From the NCBI GenBank assembly GCA_008704415.1, contig VXIS01000104.1, forward strand, positions 1 to 64,000: 64,000 bases of DNA. Direction: 5' to 3'. The position numbers and the translations under genes were made by a program. A model generated the notes under the pieces. It worked only from the letters and a program-made list of their open reading frames with translations. It was not told the DNA's origin and ran no database searches. Positions 7,613 to 22,521 of the stretch are shown one piece after another. Numbering within the stretch: the first letter of the stretch is position 1; the number at the start of each line of letters is the position of its first letter. This stretch comes from Sphaerosporella brunnea (Eukaryota; Ascomycota; Pezizomycetes; Pezizales; Pyronemataceae).

Positions 7613-8386
7613 TCAAAAGTCCCTCCTCGCAACACCTCTATACCCGCCGCCGGAGGCGACTCCCACGCCCAAATCCTTATACTCCACCCCAGGCACCGTG
7701 GCCGGCGCAAAGAACTCATCGCCAATCCTTTCGTCCCTCCTCTCCTTCTTCCTCCTCCGCCGCTCCCTCCCGGCCGCCTTGCAGCACAGAAAATACGCGC
7801 CCATGCACACGGCTGCCAGCACCCCCGTGCCGCCGAGCGACGCGGCGACGATGACGATTTTCGGGATCGGTTTGGCTGTGGAGGTGGGCGACGACGACGC
7901 GAGGTTGCTGGGGATTAGGCTTGTGTAGTCGGTCGTCCGGCTGGCGGTGGCCGTGGCCGTGGGCCGCAGCGTGGAGGTTGTGAGGGTTGTGAGGGTTGTG
8001 GGTGTGTGGGTGCTTGTGGCAGTAGCAGGGGTGGTGCTTGTAGGGGTGCTAGCTGTGATCTTCGGCCGGGTTGTGCTTGTGGTCGGAGGAGGAGTAGTGC
8101 TTGTTGTCGGAGTAGTAGTTGTTGGAGTAGTAGTAGTTGTAGGGACGCTTGTTGCCGCAGTAGTGCTTGTTGTGGCCGCCGCCTGCGTTGAAGTCTTCGG
8201 CTGCGTCTCCGTGGTGCTTGTAGTCCCCGTCTCCTTCCCGGTCGTGGTCCCCGTCTCCTTCCCGGTCGCTGTCGTCCCCGACCCCGTCCCTGTCGCAGTC
8301 CCACTCCCACTCCCACTCCCACTCTCCTGCGCCGCAACCAACGCGACCAGCAACACAAACAAGAGCATCATCTTGATCACCATCAT
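7613..8386 (-). CDS. Ser/Thr-rich single-pass membrane protein (cell-wall sensor-like)
   Basis: A single uninterrupted frame of 257 residues. An N-terminal hydrophobic signal (about residues 4-19, ending VAAQ) is followed by about 145 residues made almost only of Thr, Ser, Gly, Pro and Ala, as expected for a heavily O-mannosylated stalk. A hydrophobic helix follows at about residues 170-197 (IVIVAASLGG...AYFLCC), then a strongly basic cytoplasmic tail with RERRRRKKERR. This is the outline of fungal wall-stress sensors (Wsc/Mid2 style), but there is no cysteine-rich WSC domain, so the family is unassigned. The start is a double ATG before the signal. The next gene upstream, the multicopper oxidase, is on the same strand 630 bases away. 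Function as a sensor or plasma-membrane anchor is inferred from layout only. Confidence 0.75.
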   Translation of the reverse strand: MMVIKMMLLFVLLVALVAAQESGSGSGSGTATGTGSGTTATGKETGTTTGKETGTTSTTETQPKTSTQAAATTSTTAATSVPTTTTTPTTTTPTTSTTPPPTTSTTRPKITASTPTSTTPATATSTHTPTTLTTLTTSTLRPTATATASRTTDYTSLIPSNLASSSPTSTAKPIPKIVIVAASLGGTGVLAAVCMGAYFLCCKAAGRERRRRKKERRDERIGDEFFAPATVPGVEYKDLGVGVASGGGYRGVARRDF

Positions 8387-9014
8387 CTTCTCCTATTCCA
8401 AGAGTCAACACCAACTCGCGAGCGAAAAACCAGTTCACTCCAAAGAAAAGGTGAAAGAAGAAAGAAAGAAAGAAAGAAAGAAAGAAGGTGGTAGGTGAGG
8501 GTAACAAAGAATTCAAAGCGCTCCGCGCACAACTTTTCAAAATTCCAGGGAACTTCTCTTCCATTTATCCCCCCCCTCCCCACTTCCCATCGCCCCTGCC
8601 TACGACGGTCATACATATCCAGCAACAGTTTGAGGAAAAAAAATAAGCAGCAGCAGCCCCTCATAAACGCCTGCGTCCAATTGCAACCACAGACGCCAGC
8701 TACCCGTCGGTATGAAACAAGGAGAACGGACGCAATTGGACAGCTGAAACACACCTGAGCTGTGTGGCATGTCTTGGGAGGCTCTAATTATGCACGCGCC
8801 GCTGTGGCGCATAGACACATAAAACCGCCACGTCGGCGCGCGCGGACATCGATGCATCCGAGCCCTGTAGAGTAGGGCATCAGCCCCCATTGCGCACCCG
8901 CCGACAAATCTCACCAAATATATTCCCAGAGTGCTCAAGATACAAACCCGTAGCAGCAAAAAAAAAACGGAATATAAAAGCACTACTATCTCAAGCAAAC
9001 AAAAGCACGCCCGA
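8387..9014. other. Intergenic: promoter of the membrane protein, 3' side of the multicopper oxidase
   Basis: No gene seen. It contains an (AAAG)n tract at 8459-8487 close to the start of the minus-strand membrane protein, and mixed-composition sequence otherwise. Confidence 0.6.
8459..8487 (+). repeat. (GAAA)n microsatellite
   Basis: A run of GAAA/AAAG units about 75-100 bases upstream of the membrane-protein start, so it lies in that gene's 5' leader or promoter. Confidence 0.9.
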
Positions 9015-11402
9015 TCAGACCTTCAAGCACGGTCCCAATTGACACCCATTTCCGCACCAAATACTTCCAACCCCACACCAGCCCCACTCACTGCAGCAAT
9101 ATTCGTCTCCGAACACCTCACAAGTCCTGTTGCCATAGCCAGCTCCACATCTGTATTCCAGCACAGGACCAACCGCTGTGGTTGAAGAGGACGTTGAGTT
9201 GGTCGTATATGTCGCAGTCACCACGAGCGTGGTCGTAAATGTGCTTGTCTCAGTTTCAGTTGTCGTCGAGTCCGGAGTCGATGCTGTCTTAGTCGTGGAT
9301 GGCGTGTAAGGCGTCCAAGTCTTGCTTTTCTTGGTGACCCATTCAAAGCTCCGAGTAGCGGTGATACTAGCTTCCTGAGCTTTAAGCGTGATGCTCCACG
9401 GCGGGCGACTACCGTCATCGGAAGTAACCTGGGCAAAAGATCTCGTCAAAGGAGTGCCCGACGAGCTCGTAGACACAGCCGCCGACGCGGACGACGTCGG
9501 AGACGGCCCTTTGTATGTCAGCCAATGCTCGTCAATCCGTGCTTCCAGAAAAGCCGGGTCCGGGTACGCGTTCAGCCACGCATAATACGGCAAAACTTCC
9601 GACTTGATCTGTTGGAGGTTTGTCGCAGAGTACGTCTTGGCTTTGAACCGCTTATCCAACGGGTCTTCTAGACCGCCGGTAAGATTCCCATAGCCGAAAT
9701 CCTGCAGGGCAGTGATGTTGAATGCCGCCATCTACCGGTGGGCACAAGTCAGTAAACACCATCCGAGTGCGACCGTGTGAGGGAACTACCATCGAGACGT
9801 CTTCATGCACAACATTGTGGCAGTGGAACATCTACACCGTTAGCTTTCCACTTGCAACAGCTTGGGTTCTCAACTCACATAAACCCCCTCGTAAGGCACA
9901 AACTTCGCCAACACAGTGACCTGCTCATTGTCCCCCAGCAACGCAATATCCTTGAGCGCGCCTTTCTCATACTCCTCCAGATACATCCTCCCCGCTTTCT
10001 GGTTGGGATTGCCAACCGTTCTGGAGAGAAGTTGCATATCCACCAGATGCAGATGCACCGGATGACTCCAGCCTCCGGTGCCACGGAGGTTATATTTCTC
10101 CACAGTTCCCAACGGCGGTTTCATCTGCACTCTCGACATGGGGTCCGACCACGGCTTCCCATTGATGGTCCATGGCTGCCCAATATTTCTCACGAAATTG
10201 AACGTGCGTTCAACCACCGGAGAATTTTTCGGCAACTTTAACTCCACCAGCTTCTTCGGAATGGGTCCATTGTTACTCCAATCCGTAACGACTTTGCCAA
10301 CGTTGAACTGCATAACCTTATCACTGCCAACATAGTCGGTATCCGCAAATATCGTGGTATGCGCCAGCGTCAGGTTCTTTCCCACAAACGGAGCAAAGTC
10401 GATCACAATCTATCACCATCAGCGCCATCCGCGATCAAGTGTCATTCGCACGCACCTCCCACCTCTCAGCCATAGCAATCACCAAGCTCTTAGTCTCCAC
10501 GGGCGTCTCTCTGAACCCGGCATCACTTGCCACAACCACAAACGGCACGGAGGTGTTCTTATCCATCAGCGTGAGATTAAACGTCCTCGAAACGGCCGCA
10601 TCCAGCAGGCGAAAGCGATACTTCCTCGGCTCGACCTTGAGGTACGGCAAGATCTGGCCGTTGACGGTAAACGTATCTCCATACGTACTCGTCACCTCCT
10701 TCGACTCATCCGAGATGTTCCCCGCGGCCGTAAAAAAGTGCGAATCGAGTAGCAACGGGATGTCGTGCGCTCTCTGTGGAAGACCTAGCCTGCTTTCAAC
10801 CGCGCTGTCGGTGATCAGGTACATCCCCACCTGACCGGCGTAGGTATTAAGCGTGGTCAACCCAGCGGTATGATCCTTCACATCTCATCAGCCTTGCTTC
10901 CCAACCCTGACCTAAAAGGCAAACAAACATGATACCACAGCGTCCTAGCGGCCGCCTGGTTAGGATAATAATAATCCTTAAACTCTCCAGGCAAGAGTAG
11001 ATCCTCAGCCCAGCCATCCCAAGGCGCCCTCGTAAAGCTTCCGTGCAAATGCACGCTGGCAGGTCTGTGCCCGCCATTAACAAACCTGACCAGCGTCTCC
11101 CTTCCCCTCTCAACCTTGAAAACCGGGCCGGGAAACAGCCCGTCGTACCCGACCAGGTCCGCGTCCTGCAGCCCCGGAAAAAACCCCTTCTTGAATGGGC
11201 GGATGTGCACTTCGTAGAAGTCGATTGGAACGCCCGTGGTCGGGTTTTTGTAGCTTGCGATGGGCACTTTGGTCGGCGGGATAGGTAAGGCGTATTGAAA
11301 GGCGTATGGGTAAGGCGGGCTGCGCCGTGGGAGCTGCTGTGCGGATACCCCCGCCGCCCAGAGGAGGGAGGCGGCAAACAACGCAATCGGGGAGATAAGC
11401 AT
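9015..11402 (-). CDS. Secreted multicopper oxidase with C-terminal hevein-type chitin-binding domain
   Basis: Five exons: 11402-10929, 10875-10456, 10409-9879, 9831-9790 and 9731-9015. All junctions are in phase 0, giving 727 residues. A signal peptide (MLISPIALFAA..SAQ) is followed by three cupredoxin-like domains with all four copper motifs: HLHG (118-121), WYHDH (156-160), HPVHLH (414-419) and MFHCHNVVHEDVSM (476-489). The HCHxxxHED form resembles bilirubin oxidase/CotA-type enzymes more than classical laccases. After a Ser/Thr-rich linker (about 565-680) comes an eight-cysteine hevein-like CBM18 module at about 682-727 (RCGAGYGN...EYCCSEWGWCG). Expected reaction: one-electron oxidation of phenols, pyrroles or metal with reduction of O2 to water, outside the cell and probably bound to chitin. 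The start was chosen at the ATG immediately before the signal peptide; open frame continues upstream without a signal. The linker-CBM18 tail is the odd feature. Confidence 0.93.
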
Positions 11403-12220: not shown

Positions 12221-14678
12221 CTATGCATACCTCCATTGGCCCTTCCTGCTCGAGCTGGGCAGGTGCGCATCACTTCCTCTGTGACGCCGGCTGGTAGCCG
12301 AGACCGTAGGCGCGTAGTCCTTCTCGTACTGTTCCTGGTAGGTGTAATCTCTGATGTCCTTGTCGGCTTTTCTTGACGAAGGGCCACGGCTTGGTTCCCG
12401 ATGGGTGTGATAGGAAGGGTGATGGGGAGTGGTGGTCCGAGTCGGAGGACTAGGGTCTTCATATCTGCTCAACGCCCACATATTAGTCTCTTGCAGCTTT
12501 TCGGTGGCTCCGTATCCAATAACGTGTAGTGACTCATACAATCCATCACCCTCGTATCTCTTGCTGTAGCTGTCGTATTTCCCCTGGTCGTAGTCTTCTT
12601 CGTCGCTATAGCGCTCGGGGCTTTCACCTCGTCGGCGGTGGGTGCTTCTACCGCGCTTGGTGGTAGTGGCGGTGGCGGGGCGGCGACTGCTACCAGTAGG
12701 TTCCTTGGTGGTGGTGGTGGTGGTGGACGGTCCCTTCGGCTTGACGCTGCGGCTGCGATTGGGCGGACGAGGAGGCTCCTCGCCAAGAGTAGGGCGCGGG
12801 TTGATTTCTTCCCGCCTGCCGTCCTCTCGCCAACTGGGTGCAGGTGCAGGTGTAGCAGGGTCACCATAGGGGTGAGGGAAGCGCGGTTGCTCGGGTGAGC
12901 CGCTCTTTTCCTCGGGGGTCAGGAACTCATGGGGATCAGGCACGGCGCTGGTGGGCGGGTACGGCTTCGACACCGAGTATGGCCTGTTTGTTCGCTTTCT
13001 TGTCAGAGAAGGTGTAGCTGCAGGCGGGGAATCCTTGGGATCATCTTCAGTGGCAGGAGCCTCGTGCGCGATGTCTCCGTCACGGATAGAATATCGCCTT
13101 CGTCTGCCCGGCGCTGGCTTCTCTGGGGCAGGCAATCCCAACGGAACTTTGTGTTCGTCATCCGAGGCCACAGAGTCGTCAGCTGGGAAGTCCTCCTGGA
13201 CTGCCTGCCACCAGCCCGTGAAGATCTGGCGATCCTCTGTAGGAGGGAAACATTCCCTCGGGATGAGTTTGGGCATCTCAACCCTCCCTTGGTCGAAAAG
13301 CGTCCACTGGTCCAAAACTTTCGAAAGACGGATCCATTCACGGTGTGGTGCCGTCATAAGCTGGGTGAACATCCACACCTCGAATCCACGCGGGGTCAGA
13401 CCAGGTACAGTGGGAACTAGGCTTGTTTTGGTGGGCACGAGGTGGTGCTCCACATTGAGAGCACAGAAAAGCTCAGACAAGACTCTGGGGTTGCGCGTGT
13501 TGAAGAACCCTGTGAAATCGATGAGCGATGAAACAAGACGAAGTTAGGGAACACAAACTGAGCCAATAGTCTTGATCGTGTTTCTCCTCCTCTGGTCCGG
13601 CTGGGAAAGTCATATAAAACTGCATGAGCTTGTCCAACGTCACCACACAGCTGTTGGTGGGCTCCAAAAGAGCAATCTATCACGGGATCAGCCCTTCGTC
13701 CATTCAAATGGGGAGGGTTGCGCTCACCATGTAACCAGCGATTCCTTTGAATAACGAAACGAGCTTCGGTTTTGGGCGAGGCTCGCGGCCAGGCGCGACC
13801 TCAACCAACTGTCCGCCCCACTGCTCCCAAGCATGAGCCATGTCATGCGACTTGCTGCTAGCGTAAGATATCTCAGAAGCCTGCTCGGATGGCTTCCTTG
13901 CAGGCTCCGGTCGTCCCAAAGGCGCTGGCGTCTTGGAAGGTGGGGGCGGGGCTGGCGCCTCTGGAGCGCCAAACGAACCCGGCATGGGAGCTGGAGTTTT
14001 TGACGGAGCAGGGGGGGCAGGAGAGGGCGCAGCCTTTGGCGGCGGGGCCGGGGCGGGTGGATGCGGCGCCTCCCCAGCATGGGACGGAGGGCCTGGTCGG
14101 CTATAGTAACCATACGGCGGGTAAGCGTAATGCATGTGTGGTTGCCTAGCAGACGGTGGGACATCGTGAGGGAAGTGGGGCGGCATCGAAGTATCGATGC
14201 GCGACACAGGAGGGGAGTCAGGAGCTGCAGCCGGCGCTGGAGCTGCGGGAGCTGGAGCAGGCGAAGTCTTCGATGTCTTCAGGTTGTTAAGCTGATTGAT
14301 CATGTCCTGAAGCTGTTCAGGCGACATGCTGCTGAAAGCTCCTCCTGCAGACAACGGCGTTGCTGCTGCGGGCGCTGGCGCTGGCGCTGGAGGCGCCGGA
14401 ACAGGATACACAGTGGCTGGCGGGGGGCCTCCTGCTGGTGTTTGCGGGGCGGTGGCTGGCGGCGGGGGCATGCCATAGTAGAGCGCTTGAGCGGGCGGCG
14501 GATACTGCGACGGGGCTGGATACGGAGCGGTCGTATGCGGCCGCGCGGGAGGCGGCGAACTGGGCGACTGCGGCGGTGCAGGTGCGTGGGGATATCCGTT
14601 GGGATGAGGGTAGCCGGCAGGCGGCGGGCCATAGTAGCGAGGGTCGTAGGGGCCGGACGGATAGGCGTAGGTGCTCAT
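12221..14678 (-). CDS. Proline-rich DUF7514-domain protein
   Basis: Three exons: 14678-13728, 13676-13559 and 13509-12221, giving 785 residues. The start is in a strong context (GCCGCC ATG AGC). The first 290 residues are Pro/Ala/Tyr low complexity (PYDPRYYGPPPAGYPHP...). The conserved core spans the two junctions: LFKGIAGYM, then EPTNSCVVTLDKLMQFYMTF, then LRFFNTRNPRVLSELFCALN, VEHHLVPTKTSLVPTVPGLT and PRGFEVWMFTQLM. This matches my memory of the fungal DUF7514 domain. The last 350 residues are charged, Ser/Arg-rich and disordered. The domain's function is unknown; the protein is presumably cytosolic or nuclear, with no signal or membrane segment. A further intron inside the last exon (near 12465-12520, AG before ATATGAAGAC) cannot be excluded because the frame stays open either way. 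Confidence 0.85.
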
Positions 14679-17278: not shown

Positions 17279-19180
17279 TCACTGATACCTCGCATCCCAA
17301 TACAAGCCCACATCCGCCGCCTCCTCGCCACTCCAAACACGAGCGGCATCATTAGCCGCGGCCACAGCGCTCCTCAAGTCCCGCCCCATACCCTGGGGCC
17401 CACTGGCCAGCACCTGGGATCTGCCGGTGCCCGCAGTACTGTGTACCCACTCAGCAACAACATCAGCGCATGCGGGCCTCGCAAACACCGCGTGCTTCCA
17501 CACCACAGCGTCGTCGTCGTCGTCGTCGTCGACGGCGGCCTTCTCGATCTCCTTTCCCTTGACCGTGTCCCTCGTGACGTAAAGCACAAGCTCAAACCTG
17601 ACATTTCGGTGCTTCGCCGCCTCGACCAGCTGGACTAGCTCCTGGTGGATCCACGCAACGTTCCGTTCGCGGCGGACGATCCACACAAACCGCAGGTTGG
17701 TGGTAGAGGTGGCGGTGGTGATTAATGCCGCGACCAAGGGTAGCGTGAACGACACCCCTGTGCCGCCTGCGACGAGGAGGTAGTTCTCTGCGCCGGGATC
17801 GATGACGGGGCAGCCGTAAGCTCCACACAAAACCACGGGCAGGGTCTTTTCGGGCTGCGTCTGCACCGCCGCAGCAAGCCTTGCCGTCTCTCCGCTCATG
17901 GCCACGATGACATAGACCTGTTCCTCGGCCCTAACAACCGCGGGCGTAAACGGATGCGACTGCCAGAGCGTGATACTCGGGAACGTGAGGAAGAAGTGTT
18001 GGCCGGGTTTATAGCCAAACGGGGTAGTCTTGACCCTAAGCGTAACGACGACGACTCCATCGTCATCCGAAAACACCTGCGGCACCGCCTCAGCCGGCTT
18101 GAAGCCAACGCCTCGCCCCTCCTTCTTGAGGCCATAATGGAGCAGCGCCATTCTGAGCAGCCGGAGGCCGCGATCGAAGAGGATCACGGCAATGGAGGCA
18201 ACGAGCCAATGGAACGTCTGCGGCCAATGCGCCCAACAAGCGCCACAGAATAGTAGTGCGAGGATGTAATGGCTCTTCCGGAACGCCTCATATCCCATCC
18301 ACCTAACCACCGAGCTCAAGCTCCCCACCCACAGGAACGCAATCATCATCATGGCGATGAAGCCCCACTGGTAATACCGTTCCTGCCACTGGCCCTTCAG
18401 GTATGCAGGCTGCGTGGCCGGGTTGTAGAAGTGGCCCTGAACGATTGTCCATGCGATTGTGTGGATCAGGCTCTGTGCGAAGATGATCTGGCCGAGGGCG
18501 CGGTGCATGAAGTTGAAATGTTGATACGGGATGCCGGTGATGAGCGAGAAGAGGTTGTCTCTGGCGGACAACACCACTGTCAGCGGCGTCAGCGCGTACG
18601 CAATGGATCCTATGCGGTCCGACCACCAGCCGAGCGCGGTGCGTTTCTTGGTGCCGTCTTGCCAGACTTTATTATAAGTCCCGCCGACAAATCTATTCCC
18701 ATCAGCACCCTGCACACCACCACCACAGAAAGGGGAAACAAACGTGAAAATGGTAAGGTAAACACAAACCAACCCCAACACAGTGATCTGGACCCTCGAC
18801 ACGCCCCTAAGCATCCCAAAAACATTTCCGTGCGGCAATAACCTGCGGCGAAGGAACGCAATGGTGGTCCTAAGCATCCTTGCGCCTCCTCCTCCAGCCC
18901 GTCGTGCTCCCTCCACATCCACGCTCCCCGCGGCGTTCTTCCTGCGCACCCAAAACCTGCACACGCCAACAGCAATGAGTAGGCAGCCAATGACCCACCA
19001 AAGTATAAACGTGTACCACATAGTGCGGTCATGCATCTGCCAGTACATGACCATGTACTCACAATACGGCTTGCCGCCAACACATGGGATCGTCTCGTAC
19101 CCGTAGCCCCAGTGGAAGCGGTAGGTTTTTGGGTTTGCTCCCGCCGAAGGAGGGTCCAGTTCGTCCATGCCTTGCATCAT
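17279..19180 (-). CDS. Ferric/cupric reductase (FRE family) transmembrane protein
   Basis: One exon. From the ATG at 19180 the protein is about 633 residues. The frame stays open to another ATG at 19387, which would add 69 residues, but that extension is C/T-rich at the DNA level and ends in a Glu run, so I prefer the inner start (context GCCACG ATG). Positions below use the long form. Six to seven membrane helices lie between about 122 and 410, with haem-ligand histidines H295/H309 and H373/H387 in the ferric-reductase domain. The FAD site is HPFTPA (478-483), the NADPH site LLVAGGTGVSFTLP (537-550), and the C-terminal motif ASGPQG (661-666). It should pass electrons from NADPH through FAD and two haems to extracellular Fe(III) or Cu(II) for uptake at the plasma membrane. 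A run of seven Asp (620-626), from a (GTC)n tract, interrupts a loop of the NADPH-binding part. Confidence 0.93.
   Translation of the reverse strand: MMQGMDELDPPSAGANPKTYRFHWGYGYETIPCVGGKPYCEYMVMYWQMHDRTMWYTFILWWVIGCLLIAVGVCRFWVRRKNAAGSVDVEGARRAGGGGARMLRTTIAFLRRRLLPHGNVFGMLRGVSRVQITVLGLVCVYLTIFTFVSPFCGGGVQGADGNRFVGGTYNKVWQDGTKKRTALGWWSDRIGSIAYALTPLTVVLSARDNLFSLITGIPYQHFNFMHRALGQIIFAQSLIHTIAWTIVQGHFYNPATQPAYLKGQWQERYYQWGFIAMMMIAFLWVGSLSSVVRWMGYEAFRKSHYILALLFCGACWAHWPQTFHWLVASIAVILFDRGLRLLRMALLHYGLKKEGRGVGFKPAEAVPQVFSDDDGVVVVTLRVKTTPFGYKPGQHFFLTFPSITLWQSHPFTPAVVRAEEQVYVIVAMSGETARLAAAVQTQPEKTLPVVLCGAYGCPVIDPGAENYLLVAGGTGVSFTLPLVAALITTATSTTNLRFVWIVRRERNVAWIHQELVQLVEAAKHRNVRFELVLYVTRDTVKGKEIEKAAVDDDDDDDAVVWKHAVFARPACADVVAEWVHSTAGTGRSQVLASGPQGMGRDLRSAVAAANDAARVWSGEEAADVGLYWDARYQ
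17506..17532 (+). repeat. Coding (GTC)n microsatellite giving poly-Asp
   Basis: A CGT/GTC trinucleotide tract inside the ferric reductase. On the coding strand it reads GAC repeats and encodes seven consecutive Asp. Confidence 0.95.
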
Positions 19181-20131
19181 CGTGGCTTCTTCTTCTTCTT
19201 CTTCGTGGGCGTGCCGGTAGGTATCTCCTTTGTCTGTGTCTGAATCTGTATCTTCCTCCGTTATGCCTGAGGTCCGGATGGGCGAGGAAGAAAAGGAGAG
19301 GGAGAAGAGGAGAGGAGGGCAGTTTAAAGACCGTCCGAGCGAGCGAGATCCTAACCTGCGTCCCTCTAATCCATCAAGTACGATCATATCCCCCGTACAC
19401 AGTAAAACCAGCTCACGGCGGCCATCCCCATCAGATCACATCACCACCTTCCCGCTCGCTAAAACCTGCTCGGGCTTCTTCGCGAGAAGACCGTGGGTAT
19501 AAACGTGCTCAAAAGCCCGCTTCTTGGCTTTTTGGTGCAGGGATTGGTTGGTGGTTTTAAAACTCATGTCTACATGTATGTACGGAAAACATGCTCACAA
19601 CGCTAGAAGAAAGAGAAGGTTTTTTTCTTGTGACGAGACGAGATGAGATGGACTGGCATACATACCGGGTTGCCAGAATTCTGCCGAGAGAGAATACAGA
19701 ATATCATTTCCCTTTTCAGTTCCGTGAGCTGGTTTTTTCTGTGCCTGCAAGAGGACAAAAAGAGAGAGAGATCTTGAGAGAGGATCCGGATCGGGCTATA
19801 GCTACCAACCCACGTTGTGTTGATATTTCTTCACTCGTCGAGCCATTAATCATGATTCCTCCCCCACCTATGCAAACATACTTCTTACATAATGTATAAA
19901 CCAGCGCAATGAAGAAGTGAAAGCCCCATCCATATCTACAGCATGCATAACTCACCCCTTCGCCATGGTGTCCCTACAATATATGCAACCAAGAAAAAAA
20001 AGAAAAAAAAAACTTCTCTTATCCCCTCAAAAATCCCAAGCCAAAAAAAGGAGAAATTCCCCAGGGTATCAACCGAAAAGAAAAAAGAGATAAAATCAAA
20101 GAGAATCAAAAAAAACACTTTCCCAACCTGG
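19181..20131. other. Intergenic: ferric reductase promoter and 3' side of the Dal5-type carrier
   Basis: No separate gene seen. It includes the upstream extension of the ferric reductase frame (to 19387), A-rich blocks near 19990-20070 and otherwise plain sequence. I did not find a clear iron-responsive ATCWGATAA site. Confidence 0.5.
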
Positions 20132-22521
20132 TCACAGCGCCCAAAGCGGTTTTTCAATTCCTTCCTTTCGAATTTTAGCATTTTCCCGCATATACCACCA
20201 CCTCAACCCAAGGACGCAAATCACGCCAACCAAGAGCATGCCGACGTTGGCGAAATGCCCCGTCGGATAACCCTTAGCCTGTTCTTCGCTGCGGTAGATC
20301 CACACGCCAACAATCTGTCCTGGTCCTCCAAAACTCACGTTCAGAGCTATTGCCAATCCTGCCGCGCTAGTGGAGTGGAGGTTTCCACTGAGCCAACCGA
20401 GTAATGGTGCTATGCACGCAAAAGAGCCGGCGCAGGCCACGATCAAGCAGACGTAACGCGCGACGTAGCGGTCCGGGGTAACAATCCCAGAGACGAGGAA
20501 ACCGACGGCCCCCACGGCCATGCATGTCGCCGAGTGAAGGGCGCGTGCGTTGTAGCGGTCAGATGTAAAAGCGACTGCCACGGTGATGACATACGATACT
20601 GCCCAGGGGGGAATCGTCATCAGCTGAGCCTGCAGGGGAGAGTAACCAAGCCCGTCGACAATCGAGGGTGTAAATAGAGAGAGTGAGGAGAAGGAAACTG
20701 AGACAGCAAAATAAATCTTGTGGTGCATCAGCATTGAACAAACCCTGCGGAATCGAATATGTTCACATACCACATAATGAAAATACAGCCGCCAATCCAT
20801 AAGCGTTTCTTTGGCTTCCTTCCAGGTCATGGGCGGTGAGGCGCCTTTCGAGCCGTTGTAGGCCAAGCGCTGCCCCGCCAGCCGCGCTTCTTCAGTGCTG
20901 AGCCACATTGAGGTTTCGGGATAGTCAGGAAGGAACTTCCATACAGCTATAGCCGATAGGCAAGATGGTATTCCCTCTGTCAATCATGTCAGTAACTATT
21001 GCACACATGCGGCGATTGCTCGCAGCCACTCTGCAAAGCGCAAACCGATGGTCGATGGCCAATGGACTTTCCACATCTAGCAGCCCAACCATAACAAATA
21101 CTAGTCTATGCATGCTTTTATCCTCCCCAGTCCATGAAAATTTCTTAGTATTTGGACATGCAAGCCTGTGAATGCGATCCTCGGTCGGAATAAAGTAACG
21201 TGAAGCGTGTTGGCGAAAATAAGCAAAATCAAGAATCACTGCTTGTGTATGATGCGATGACTAATCCATGGGCGAATTGGAAAGCCGAGACATCTGTCTC
21301 CTTGGAGACAACAATGAATGTGCACGCCGGAGACAGCCGAATTCTCGGATAATATCCTTAGTGTTGACAGTATCTCGTGGGATCGGCTTGACCTCAGGCG
21401 AGTGAAAAGAACATTGATCCAATCGATGAAACTCAATCTGGGCTCTGCCGCGTATATCTTGGGAAACCTCGCTTTCTGCCATGAACATGGACTTGGATTG
21501 CGGGTGTCATGATGCGTCATGACCCATTGAACATCGACCATCGATTTGCATTTTGTAAAGTGGCCCAGCGGCCGTTATTCTCACTCGCAGGATGAACATA
21601 CCTAAGATAAAAAGCCAACGCCATGCTGCCAAGCCCCCAACCTTGTTCATGTAGGAGATGCCTAATCACAGTGGGTCAGTCATGCCATATCACTTGTAAA
21701 TAAAACCTGGTTACTCGCCATAAGCAATAGCGCCACCGAAGGCTCCCGCGAGTGTCGAGCTCGCCATGATAAGCGCGACGCGCAAACTCCGCTCATCCGA
21801 CCGGTACCAGAAGGTGAGATAATACACCAACCCGGGAAACAATCCAGCCTCGAAAAATCCCAAGAAGAATCGCGTGGCCATGAGCGACTGAAAGTTGTTC
21901 ACGCCGCCAGTGGCAGTTGTGACAGCACCCCAGCTCACCATCAAAAACGCAATCCATTTCTATTCCTGTCAGTCAGTGTCCAAAAACAACGCTGCAAAGC
22001 AAGGCTCCATACACTCGGCGTCACCAGTTTGAGGCAATAGTTCGACGGAACTTCGAAAAGCGCAAACGCAATCAAGAATAGCATCAGCGAGAGGATGTAC
22101 ATGTCGTCGCTAATCCCGAGCTCCGTTTCCAGATCATCACCCTCTTCCAGGTTCATGATGCGCGCGTTGCCGATATTCGAGCGATCAAGGTAGCAGAGAA
22201 GGTAGATGAACGCCGACAGCGGTATGATTCTCAAGTCCTGCCTCCAGAGAAGGTTTCGGTTTTCGGGAGTCTCGGAGTTAAACATGTCGTCCCCGAAAGC
22301 GCCAGCGGTGTATTTCGACAGCTATCGCAACAGCTTCGATTAGCTTTCCCAACAGCAAAAATGGGCATGGAGCTGTAGCTCACATCCACCATCTCCGTGG
22401 GGCCTTCTTCCAGAGACATTGGAGTTATCGCACCGTCAGTGATGGTGGGTGCTCGATCTCCCATGTTGTCGAGCGAGATCTTGCTATCTCTGCGCTCGTC
22501 GCGTTCCTCGAAAGCCGACAT
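20132..22521 (-). CDS. MFS transporter, Dal5/anion:cation symporter family
   Basis: Six exons: 22521-22384, 22321-22013, 21959-21719, 21661-21602, 20976-20771 and 20716-20132, giving 512 residues. The signature after the first helix is YLDRSNIGNARI. The other helices are readable (FLIAFALFEVPSNYCLK, WIAFLMVSWGAVTTATGG, FFLGFFEAGLFPGLVYYLTF, WRWLFILEGIPSCLSAIAVW and so on), with the long cytoplasmic loop at the fourth-fifth exon junction. Relatives import allantoate, nicotinate, pantothenate and other organic anions by proton symport; the substrate here is not determinable. Three introns are odd. Intron 3 (21662-21718) needs a GC donor (TATG|GCGAGT) to keep frame. Intron 4 (20977-21601) is 625 bases, about ten times the local norm. 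Intron 5 (20717-20770) is 54 bases and stop-free, so retention would leave the frame intact. The start codon opens a 46-codon hydrophilic first exon. Confidence 0.9.

What the first reader, a model, noticed from the sequence alone, without database searches (positions are those of the whole stretch)
9015..11402. Multicopper oxidase fused to a hevein-type chitin-binding domain
All four copper motifs are intact, and an eight-cysteine CBM18 module sits at the C-terminus after a Ser/Thr linker. Fungal laccases and bilirubin oxidases normally end at the third cupredoxin domain. A chitin tether would place an oxidase on its own or a rival's cell wall, for example for melanin, wall cross-linking or defence against chitinase.
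Basis: partly seen in the sequence, partly recalled or inferred. Interest (0 to 1): 0.75.

Follow-up and report, generated by a model that had tools for sequence, protein, structure and literature searches.

The report
Copper oxidase with a chitin-binding tail
A cup fungus encodes a secreted-looking, bilirubin-oxidase-like copper enzyme that carries a small chitin-binding module on a floppy tether; some related cup fungi share the design, and a pairing of this general kind had already been noted in print, so it is real but not a new kind of thing.

Summary
On the minus strand, 11402-9015, five exons encode a 727-residue multicopper oxidase ending in a hevein-type CBM18 module. My model equals the deposited Sphaerosporella brunnea protein (Pezizales) letter for letter. 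The end of the enzyme, the Ser/Thr linker and the CBM18 share the single last exon, so a separate CBM18 gene is very unlikely. The catalytic part is bilirubin-oxidase type; all twelve copper ligands are present. The same architecture occurs in Geopyxis, Tirmania, Kalaharituber, an unnamed relative and, cut short, Rhizina: 6 of 139 listed proteins, itself included. In a tree of 34 all six lie on one side of one branch (94/91). The CBM18 is nearly as conserved as the catalytic core, the linker is not. AA1 oxidases with CBM18 were noted by Levasseur et al. 2013, and a CBM20 laccase has been characterised. Most likely the enzyme is held on chitin, probably the fungus's own wall, and oxidises phenolic, pigment or metal substrates there. 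Chitin binding, substrate and location are inferred, not shown. New member of a known kind; modest interest.

The parts
10929..11402 (-). Exon 1: start codon, likely signal peptide (about residues 1-21), first cupredoxin domain with HLHG and the WYH of WYHDH
   Evidence: Splice model; Pfam PF07732; identical to P0001. Signal peptide judged by eye.
10456..10875 (-). Exon 2: DH of WYHDH, second cupredoxin domain
9879..10409 (-). Exon 3: third cupredoxin domain with WSHPVHLH (Trp412, His414, His417, His419)
9790..9831 (-). Exon 4 (42 nt): MFHCHNVVHEDVSM, carrying His478, Cys479, His480, His484 and Met489
9732..9789 (-). Intron 4 (58 nt, GT-AG); retention would shift the frame
9015..9731 (-). Exon 5: end of the catalytic part (490-560), linker, CBM18 and stop, in one open frame
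9153..9518 (-). Ser/Thr-rich linker, residues 561-682 (46% Ser+Thr, no Cys; pLDDT under 50 at residues 566-680)
9027..9152 (-). CBM18 (Chitin_bind_1), residues 683-724, eight cysteines

Best explanation
It is a secreted bilirubin-oxidase-type multicopper oxidase anchored to chitin. The T1 copper takes single electrons from a small substrate (phenol, pigment precursor, or Mn(II)) and the trinuclear cluster reduces O2 to water. A disordered, probably O-glycosylated linker of about 120 residues ends in one CBM18 that holds the enzyme on chitin, most likely in the fungus's own hyphal or fruit-body wall, so that oxidation products are laid down where the enzyme sits. Shown by computation: gene structure, copper ligands, fold, module identity, conservation of the fusion in several Pezizales. 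Inferred: secretion (signal peptide by eye), chitin binding, substrate, wall location and benefit.
For: One continuous last exon joins enzyme and CBM18; deposited model identical, 727 of 727. Best solved relatives are bilirubin oxidase by sequence (E 1.9e-145) and Myrothecium bilirubin oxidase by fold (45% identity, TM-score 0.91 by target length). All 12 copper ligands present; Trp412 of the W-x-H motif kept in 50 of 51 aligned proteins. The CBM18 matches wheat germ agglutinin. The CBM18 is 44-51% identical to the C-terminal CBM18 of three relatives, the core 51.5-54.5%, the linker 14-23%, as expected if the CBM18 is under selection. The six CBM18 bearers lie on one side of one branch in a tree of 34 (94/91, just under the program's star mark; 18 of 500 label shuffles cluster as tightly). 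The four other CBM18 loci that the genome search found sit beside three GH18 chitinases and one AA5 glyoxal oxidase.
Against: No binding or activity data. A single CBM18 may bind weakly. The Pfam score is only just over the cut-off (29.0 against 27.8), and the modelled CBM18 has low to moderate confidence. The closest relative, Trichophaea hybrida P0002 (70% identity), ends before the linker in its deposited model, P0047 has no CBM18, and a nested dothideomycete group has none, so the tail is dispensable in some lineages or some models are short. RNA-seq for this locus was not seen.
Confidence: 0.6

Rival explanations
1. The CBM18 directs the oxidase to foreign chitin (rival fungi, arthropods, dead hyphae in soil), for attack or for turnover of chitin-bound phenolics.
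For: S. brunnea is an ectomycorrhizal fungus with facultative saprophytic capacity that co-occurs on truffle seedlings. CBM18 in the same genome also sits beside GH18 chitinase domains.
Against: Bilirubin-oxidase-type enzymes are not known to cut chitin (own knowledge); nothing in the sequence separates own from foreign chitin.
Confidence: 0.2
2. The tail mainly shields or masks wall chitin (lectin-like role), the oxidase being incidental or secondary.
For: CBM18-only lectin-like proteins and CBM18-tyrosinase proteins exist in Batrachochytrium (passages).
Against: All copper ligands are kept and the core is conserved at least as strongly as the CBM18; one CBM18 on a 727-residue protein is a poor shield.
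Confidence: 0.08
3. The CBM18 tail is a decaying relic of an ancestral tandem, no longer functional.
For: The three Tirmania/Kalaharituber-type relatives carry two CBM18s, this gene one; some members of the group have none in the listed models.
Against: All eight Cys are kept and the sugar-site positions read Ser-Trp-Trp-Trp, more aromatic than the seven copies in the four other proteins with complete modules; 19-22 of 43 residues shared with three of them against a scrambled linker.
Confidence: 0.1
4. It is an iron or manganese oxidase working with the ferric-reductase-like gene about 6 kb away.
For: Ferric-reductase domains at 17282-19435; bilirubin oxidases are candidate or reported Mn(II) oxidases in ascomycetes (passages).
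Against: A more Fet3-like multicopper oxidase lies elsewhere in this genome (C351; likeness to Fet3 judged by eye); at least one other gene-like frame (DUF7514, 12224-13543) lies between; linkage was tested in no other genome.
Confidence: 0.12
5. Annotation artefact: oxidase and CBM18 are separate transcripts.
For: The closest relative's model (P0002) lacks the tail.
Against: Shared uninterrupted exon here, and the same order in four other deposited proteins, three of them from named species and one (P0015) from unnamed, probably metagenomic contigs.
Confidence: 0.02

Closest known systems
Myrothecium verrucaria bilirubin oxidase (PDB 6IQZ, 2XLL, 3ABG)
   Same: Three cupredoxin domains, same copper ligands, same W-x-H motif and MMAAFN junction; 45% identity, TM-score 0.91 by target length
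   Different: The solved chains are 534-538 residues and end about where the linker begins here; no CBM18
AA1 multicopper oxidases with CBM18 noted by Levasseur et al. 2013 (PMC3620520, section 16 and passages read)
   Same: Multicopper oxidase joined to CBM18
   Different: The section read names no organism or subfamily for them; whether those were of bilirubin-oxidase type is not stated there
ZtrLac1A, laccase with CBM20 from Zymoseptoria tritici (PMC6700816, passages read)
   Same: Ascomycete multicopper oxidase with an appended carbohydrate-binding module shown to bind a ligand
   Different: AA1_3 laccase and a starch module, not bilirubin oxidase and chitin
AA5 glyoxal oxidases with CBM18 (e.g. 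Botrytis P0173, Ascobolus P0156; Morchella importuna secretome, PMC8185036 passages)
   Same: Secreted copper oxidase with CBM18; in P0173 and P0155, P0157, P0158 (not P0156) tandem modules of the same two spacing types in the same order as in Tirmania and Kalaharituber
   Different: Different catalytic domain; the CBM18s lie in the N-terminal half
CBM18-tyrosinase proteins of Batrachochytrium (PMC3569864, passages read)
   Same: Copper phenol oxidase with CBM18
   Different: Tyrosinase, a two-copper enzyme of unrelated fold (own knowledge)

Membership tests
Multicopper oxidase (three-domain) | Ten His and one Cys copper ligands in four motifs (roles recalled) | tested here: met
Multicopper oxidase (three-domain) | Three cupredoxin domains (PF07732, PF00394, PF07731) | tested here: met
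   All three over the curated cut-off
Bilirubin oxidase (BOD/CotA type) | Closest solved relatives by sequence and by fold are bilirubin oxidases | tested here: met
   PDB sequence search, E 1.9e-145 (best 60 of 88 seen); top of the fold search (best 50 seen)
Bilirubin oxidase (BOD/CotA type) | Met axial T1 ligand and Trp two residues before the T1 His (recalled) | tested here: met
   Met489 in 51 of 51 and Trp412 in 50 of 51 aligned proteins
Bilirubin oxidase (BOD/CotA type) | Oxidises bilirubin to biliverdin | not testable with these tools
   Needs an enzyme assay
CBM18 / hevein-type chitin-binding domain | Eight cysteines in hevein order with CCS core | tested here: met
CBM18 / hevein-type chitin-binding domain | Score over the Pfam cut-off | tested here: met
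   29.0 against 27.8 bits, narrowly
CBM18 / hevein-type chitin-binding domain | Ser and three aromatic residues of the sugar site (hevein positions recalled) | tested here: met
   Ser703, Trp705, Trp707, Trp714
CBM18 / hevein-type chitin-binding domain | Binds chitin | not testable with these tools
   Needs a binding assay
Laccase in the strict sense (AA1_1) | Closer to fungal laccases than to bilirubin oxidases | tested here: inconclusive
   No direct comparison with a fungal AA1_1 set was run. NCBIfam's laccase model scores 44 bits against 558.9, but that model is not specific to fungal laccases; bilirubin oxidases lead

The most novel reading that the evidence does not exclude
Bilirubin-oxidase-type enzymes with C-terminal CBM18 are an old, distinct enzyme lineage of cup fungi that builds pigment or cross-links directly on wall chitin, its CBM18 cassette possibly shared with glyoxal oxidases, so that two unrelated secreted copper oxidases deliver their chemistry to the same chitin surface.
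Probability: 0.25. Interest if true: 0.5.

Novelty: new member of a known kind. Interest (0 to 1): 0.3.

Why it matters
The natural substrate of fungal bilirubin oxidases is, to my knowledge, not settled. A lineage whose enzyme is tethered to chitin would give a concrete place to look: wall-bound oxidation. The tail can be tested cheaply, and a chitin-binding bilirubin oxidase could be of practical use because chitin beads would immobilise it. The pairing itself is not new.

Tried and rejected
Separate-gene explanation: rejected, shared exon. Classical laccase: set aside because bilirubin oxidases lead the sequence and fold comparisons; a direct comparison with fungal laccases was not run. Ferroxidase partner of the neighbouring ferric-reductase-like gene: considered, weak. 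Origin of the CBM18 from a particular donor: pairwise scores on 45 residues put the Kalaharituber C-terminal module first (22 of 45 identical) but an AA5 module close behind (22 of 45), so it cannot be resolved. 'The six CBM18 bearers plus P0002 and P0047 form one clade without the dothideomycetes': rejected by AU test, p 1.6e-5, with the caveat that I named the group after seeing the tree. Paper searches for the exact combination gave, in what I saw, no description of a bilirubin-oxidase-type enzyme with CBM18 (13, 3 and 5 papers, each list complete; 15 of 34 and 10 of 63 papers listed; open-licence papers only; listings, and passages of seven papers).

Full report
The window lies in a 50.6 Mb fungal genome of 640 contigs. 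The protein search returned a deposited Sphaerosporella brunnea protein identical over all 727 residues to the spliced model that I built from the sequence. The genome paper (PMC6908789, part 1 of 2 of the text read) places the species in Pyronemataceae, Pezizales, and describes JGI annotation and transcriptome sequencing, but I did not see reads for this locus.

Gene. Minus strand, five exons 11402-10929, 10875-10456, 10409-9879, 9831-9790 and 9731-9015; four short GT-AG introns. Intron 4 is 58 nt, so its retention shifts the frame. The junction joins Met489 to Met490 and the alignment to bilirubin oxidase is ungapped through it. The last exon is one open frame that carries the end of the catalytic part (490-560), a linker of 122 residues with 46% Ser+Thr and no Cys, and the CBM18.

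Enzyme. Pfam finds three Cu-oxidase domains and Chitin_bind_1. Sequence search of solved structures gives bilirubin oxidase first (E 1.9e-145), then CotA. An AlphaFold model on 51 aligned proteins has mean pLDDT 76 and pTM 0.74: a core mostly over 75, with dips to 56-60 at residues 121-130 and 491-510; a linker under 50 at residues 566-680; and a CBM18 at 62-69 over residues 681-710, 53 over 711-720 and 35 after that. Its best fold matches are Myrothecium bilirubin oxidase structures, 45% identity, TM-score 0.91 by target length. The twelve copper ligands are all present in this protein. Across the 51 aligned proteins, itself included, each position is kept in 46 to 51. The exceptions are five proteins in which the HLHG segment is missing or unaligned (P0016, P0019, P0020, P0048, P0103), P0041 at His158, and P0003, which lacks the HCH segment; I take them for faulty gene models but did not check them. 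Trp412 is replaced in P0074 only.

CBM18. Eight cysteines. Against wheat germ agglutinin chains E is 5e-21 summed over four domains, about 2e-5 for the best single one shown. The positions that in hevein contact sugar (recalled) read Ser-Trp-Trp-Trp here, against Ser-(Tyr/His/Val)-Trp-His in the seven CBM18 copies of the other four proteins with complete modules. Identity to the three relatives with a matching C-terminal module (P0010, P0015, P0041): core 290 of 534, 291 of 534 and 271 of 526; linker 14 of 99, 15 of 93 and 27 of 117; CBM18 20, 19 and 22 of 43. The fourth, Geopyxis P0004, has 300 of 532 in the core, but its CBM18 did not align with ours.

Distribution. Two searches listed the best 120 of 1882 and of 1849 hits, together 139 different proteins, this one included. 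A loose cysteine pattern found CBM18 in 6 of 139: this one, Geopyxis (one module), Tirmania, Kalaharituber and the unnamed, probably metagenomic P0015 (two each), and Rhizina (module cut off at the end of the model). Pfam confirms 5 of the 51 that I aligned; Rhizina's cut module is not among them. A search with the Tirmania tail gave 85 proteins; 3 were multicopper oxidases, the query included, and 23 bore the glyoxal oxidase domain PF07250 by my count of the listing. Searches were word-based and listings capped, so absence elsewhere is not shown.

Tree. With 34 rows of catalytic core, chosen from the 139, the six CBM18 bearers fall on one side of one branch (94/91, just under the program's star mark), in a group of 12 that also holds P0002, P0047 and four dothideomycete proteins without CBM18. 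The label needs 4 changes (shuffled labels 5.7 on average, 18 of 500 shuffles as low), for instance one gain and three losses. Leaving the dothideomycetes out is rejected (AU p 1.6e-5, group named after seeing the tree). The root was midpoint only. P0002 ends just where the linker would start and has an insert of about 19 residues at the place of intron 4; P0047 comes from contigs of at most 2233 bases; so these two losses may be only apparent.

In the same genome the search found two more genes of this type, on C334 and C148, without CBM18 in the frames read. The four other CBM18 loci found, a lower bound, lie beside three GH18 domains and one glyoxal oxidase domain (Pfam).

Prior knowledge. 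Levasseur et al. [quoted passage not shown] ZtrLac1A is a characterised laccase with a working CBM20 (PMC6700816, passages). A CBM18 glyoxal oxidase is in the Morchella importuna secretome (PMC8185036, passages). Bilirubin oxidases are candidate Mn(II) oxidases in ascomycetes, though that study did not link the enzyme to the activity definitively; it cites another that assigns Mn(II) oxidation in Acremonium to a bilirubin oxidase (PMC7902709, passages). What I saw of my searches held no description of a bilirubin-oxidase-type enzyme with CBM18.

Mechanism. Shown by computation: an oxidase of bilirubin-oxidase type with all copper ligands, and a conserved chitin-binding-type module on a tether predicted to be disordered. 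Inferred: it is secreted, stays on chitin, most likely the fungus's own wall, and oxidises small phenolic, pigment or metal substrates there. The choice of own over foreign chitin rests on plausibility alone.

Verdict.

Noticed in passing
P0008, P0012, P0014, P0017 (relatives, no window coordinates): Dothideomycete proteins (Tothia, Microthyrium, two Venturia) nest inside the mainly Pezizales group, without CBM18; P0008 and P0017 have Met/His/Gly-rich inserts before the T1 His and at the C-terminus, reminiscent of the Met-rich insert of CueO (recalled). Possible gene transfer or old duplication.
   Followed up: partly
L005 (own genome, C144): A glyoxal oxidase (AA5) gene of the same genome also carries a CBM18, seemingly interrupted by an intron.
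   Followed up: partly
window 17282-19435 (-) and 20135-20983 (-): Ferric-reductase-like gene and an MFS transporter piece about 6-9 kb from the oxidase.
   Followed up: no
window 7616-8392 (-): Open frame for a Ser/Thr-rich protein with a signal-like start and what looks like one membrane span, just downstream of the oxidase (features by eye).
   Followed up: no
P0010, P0015, P0041 against P0155, P0157, P0158, P0173: These oxidases of bilirubin-oxidase type and AA5 glyoxal oxidases carry CBM18 tandems of the same two spacing types in the same order (not so in P0156), at opposite ends of the protein.
   Followed up: partly
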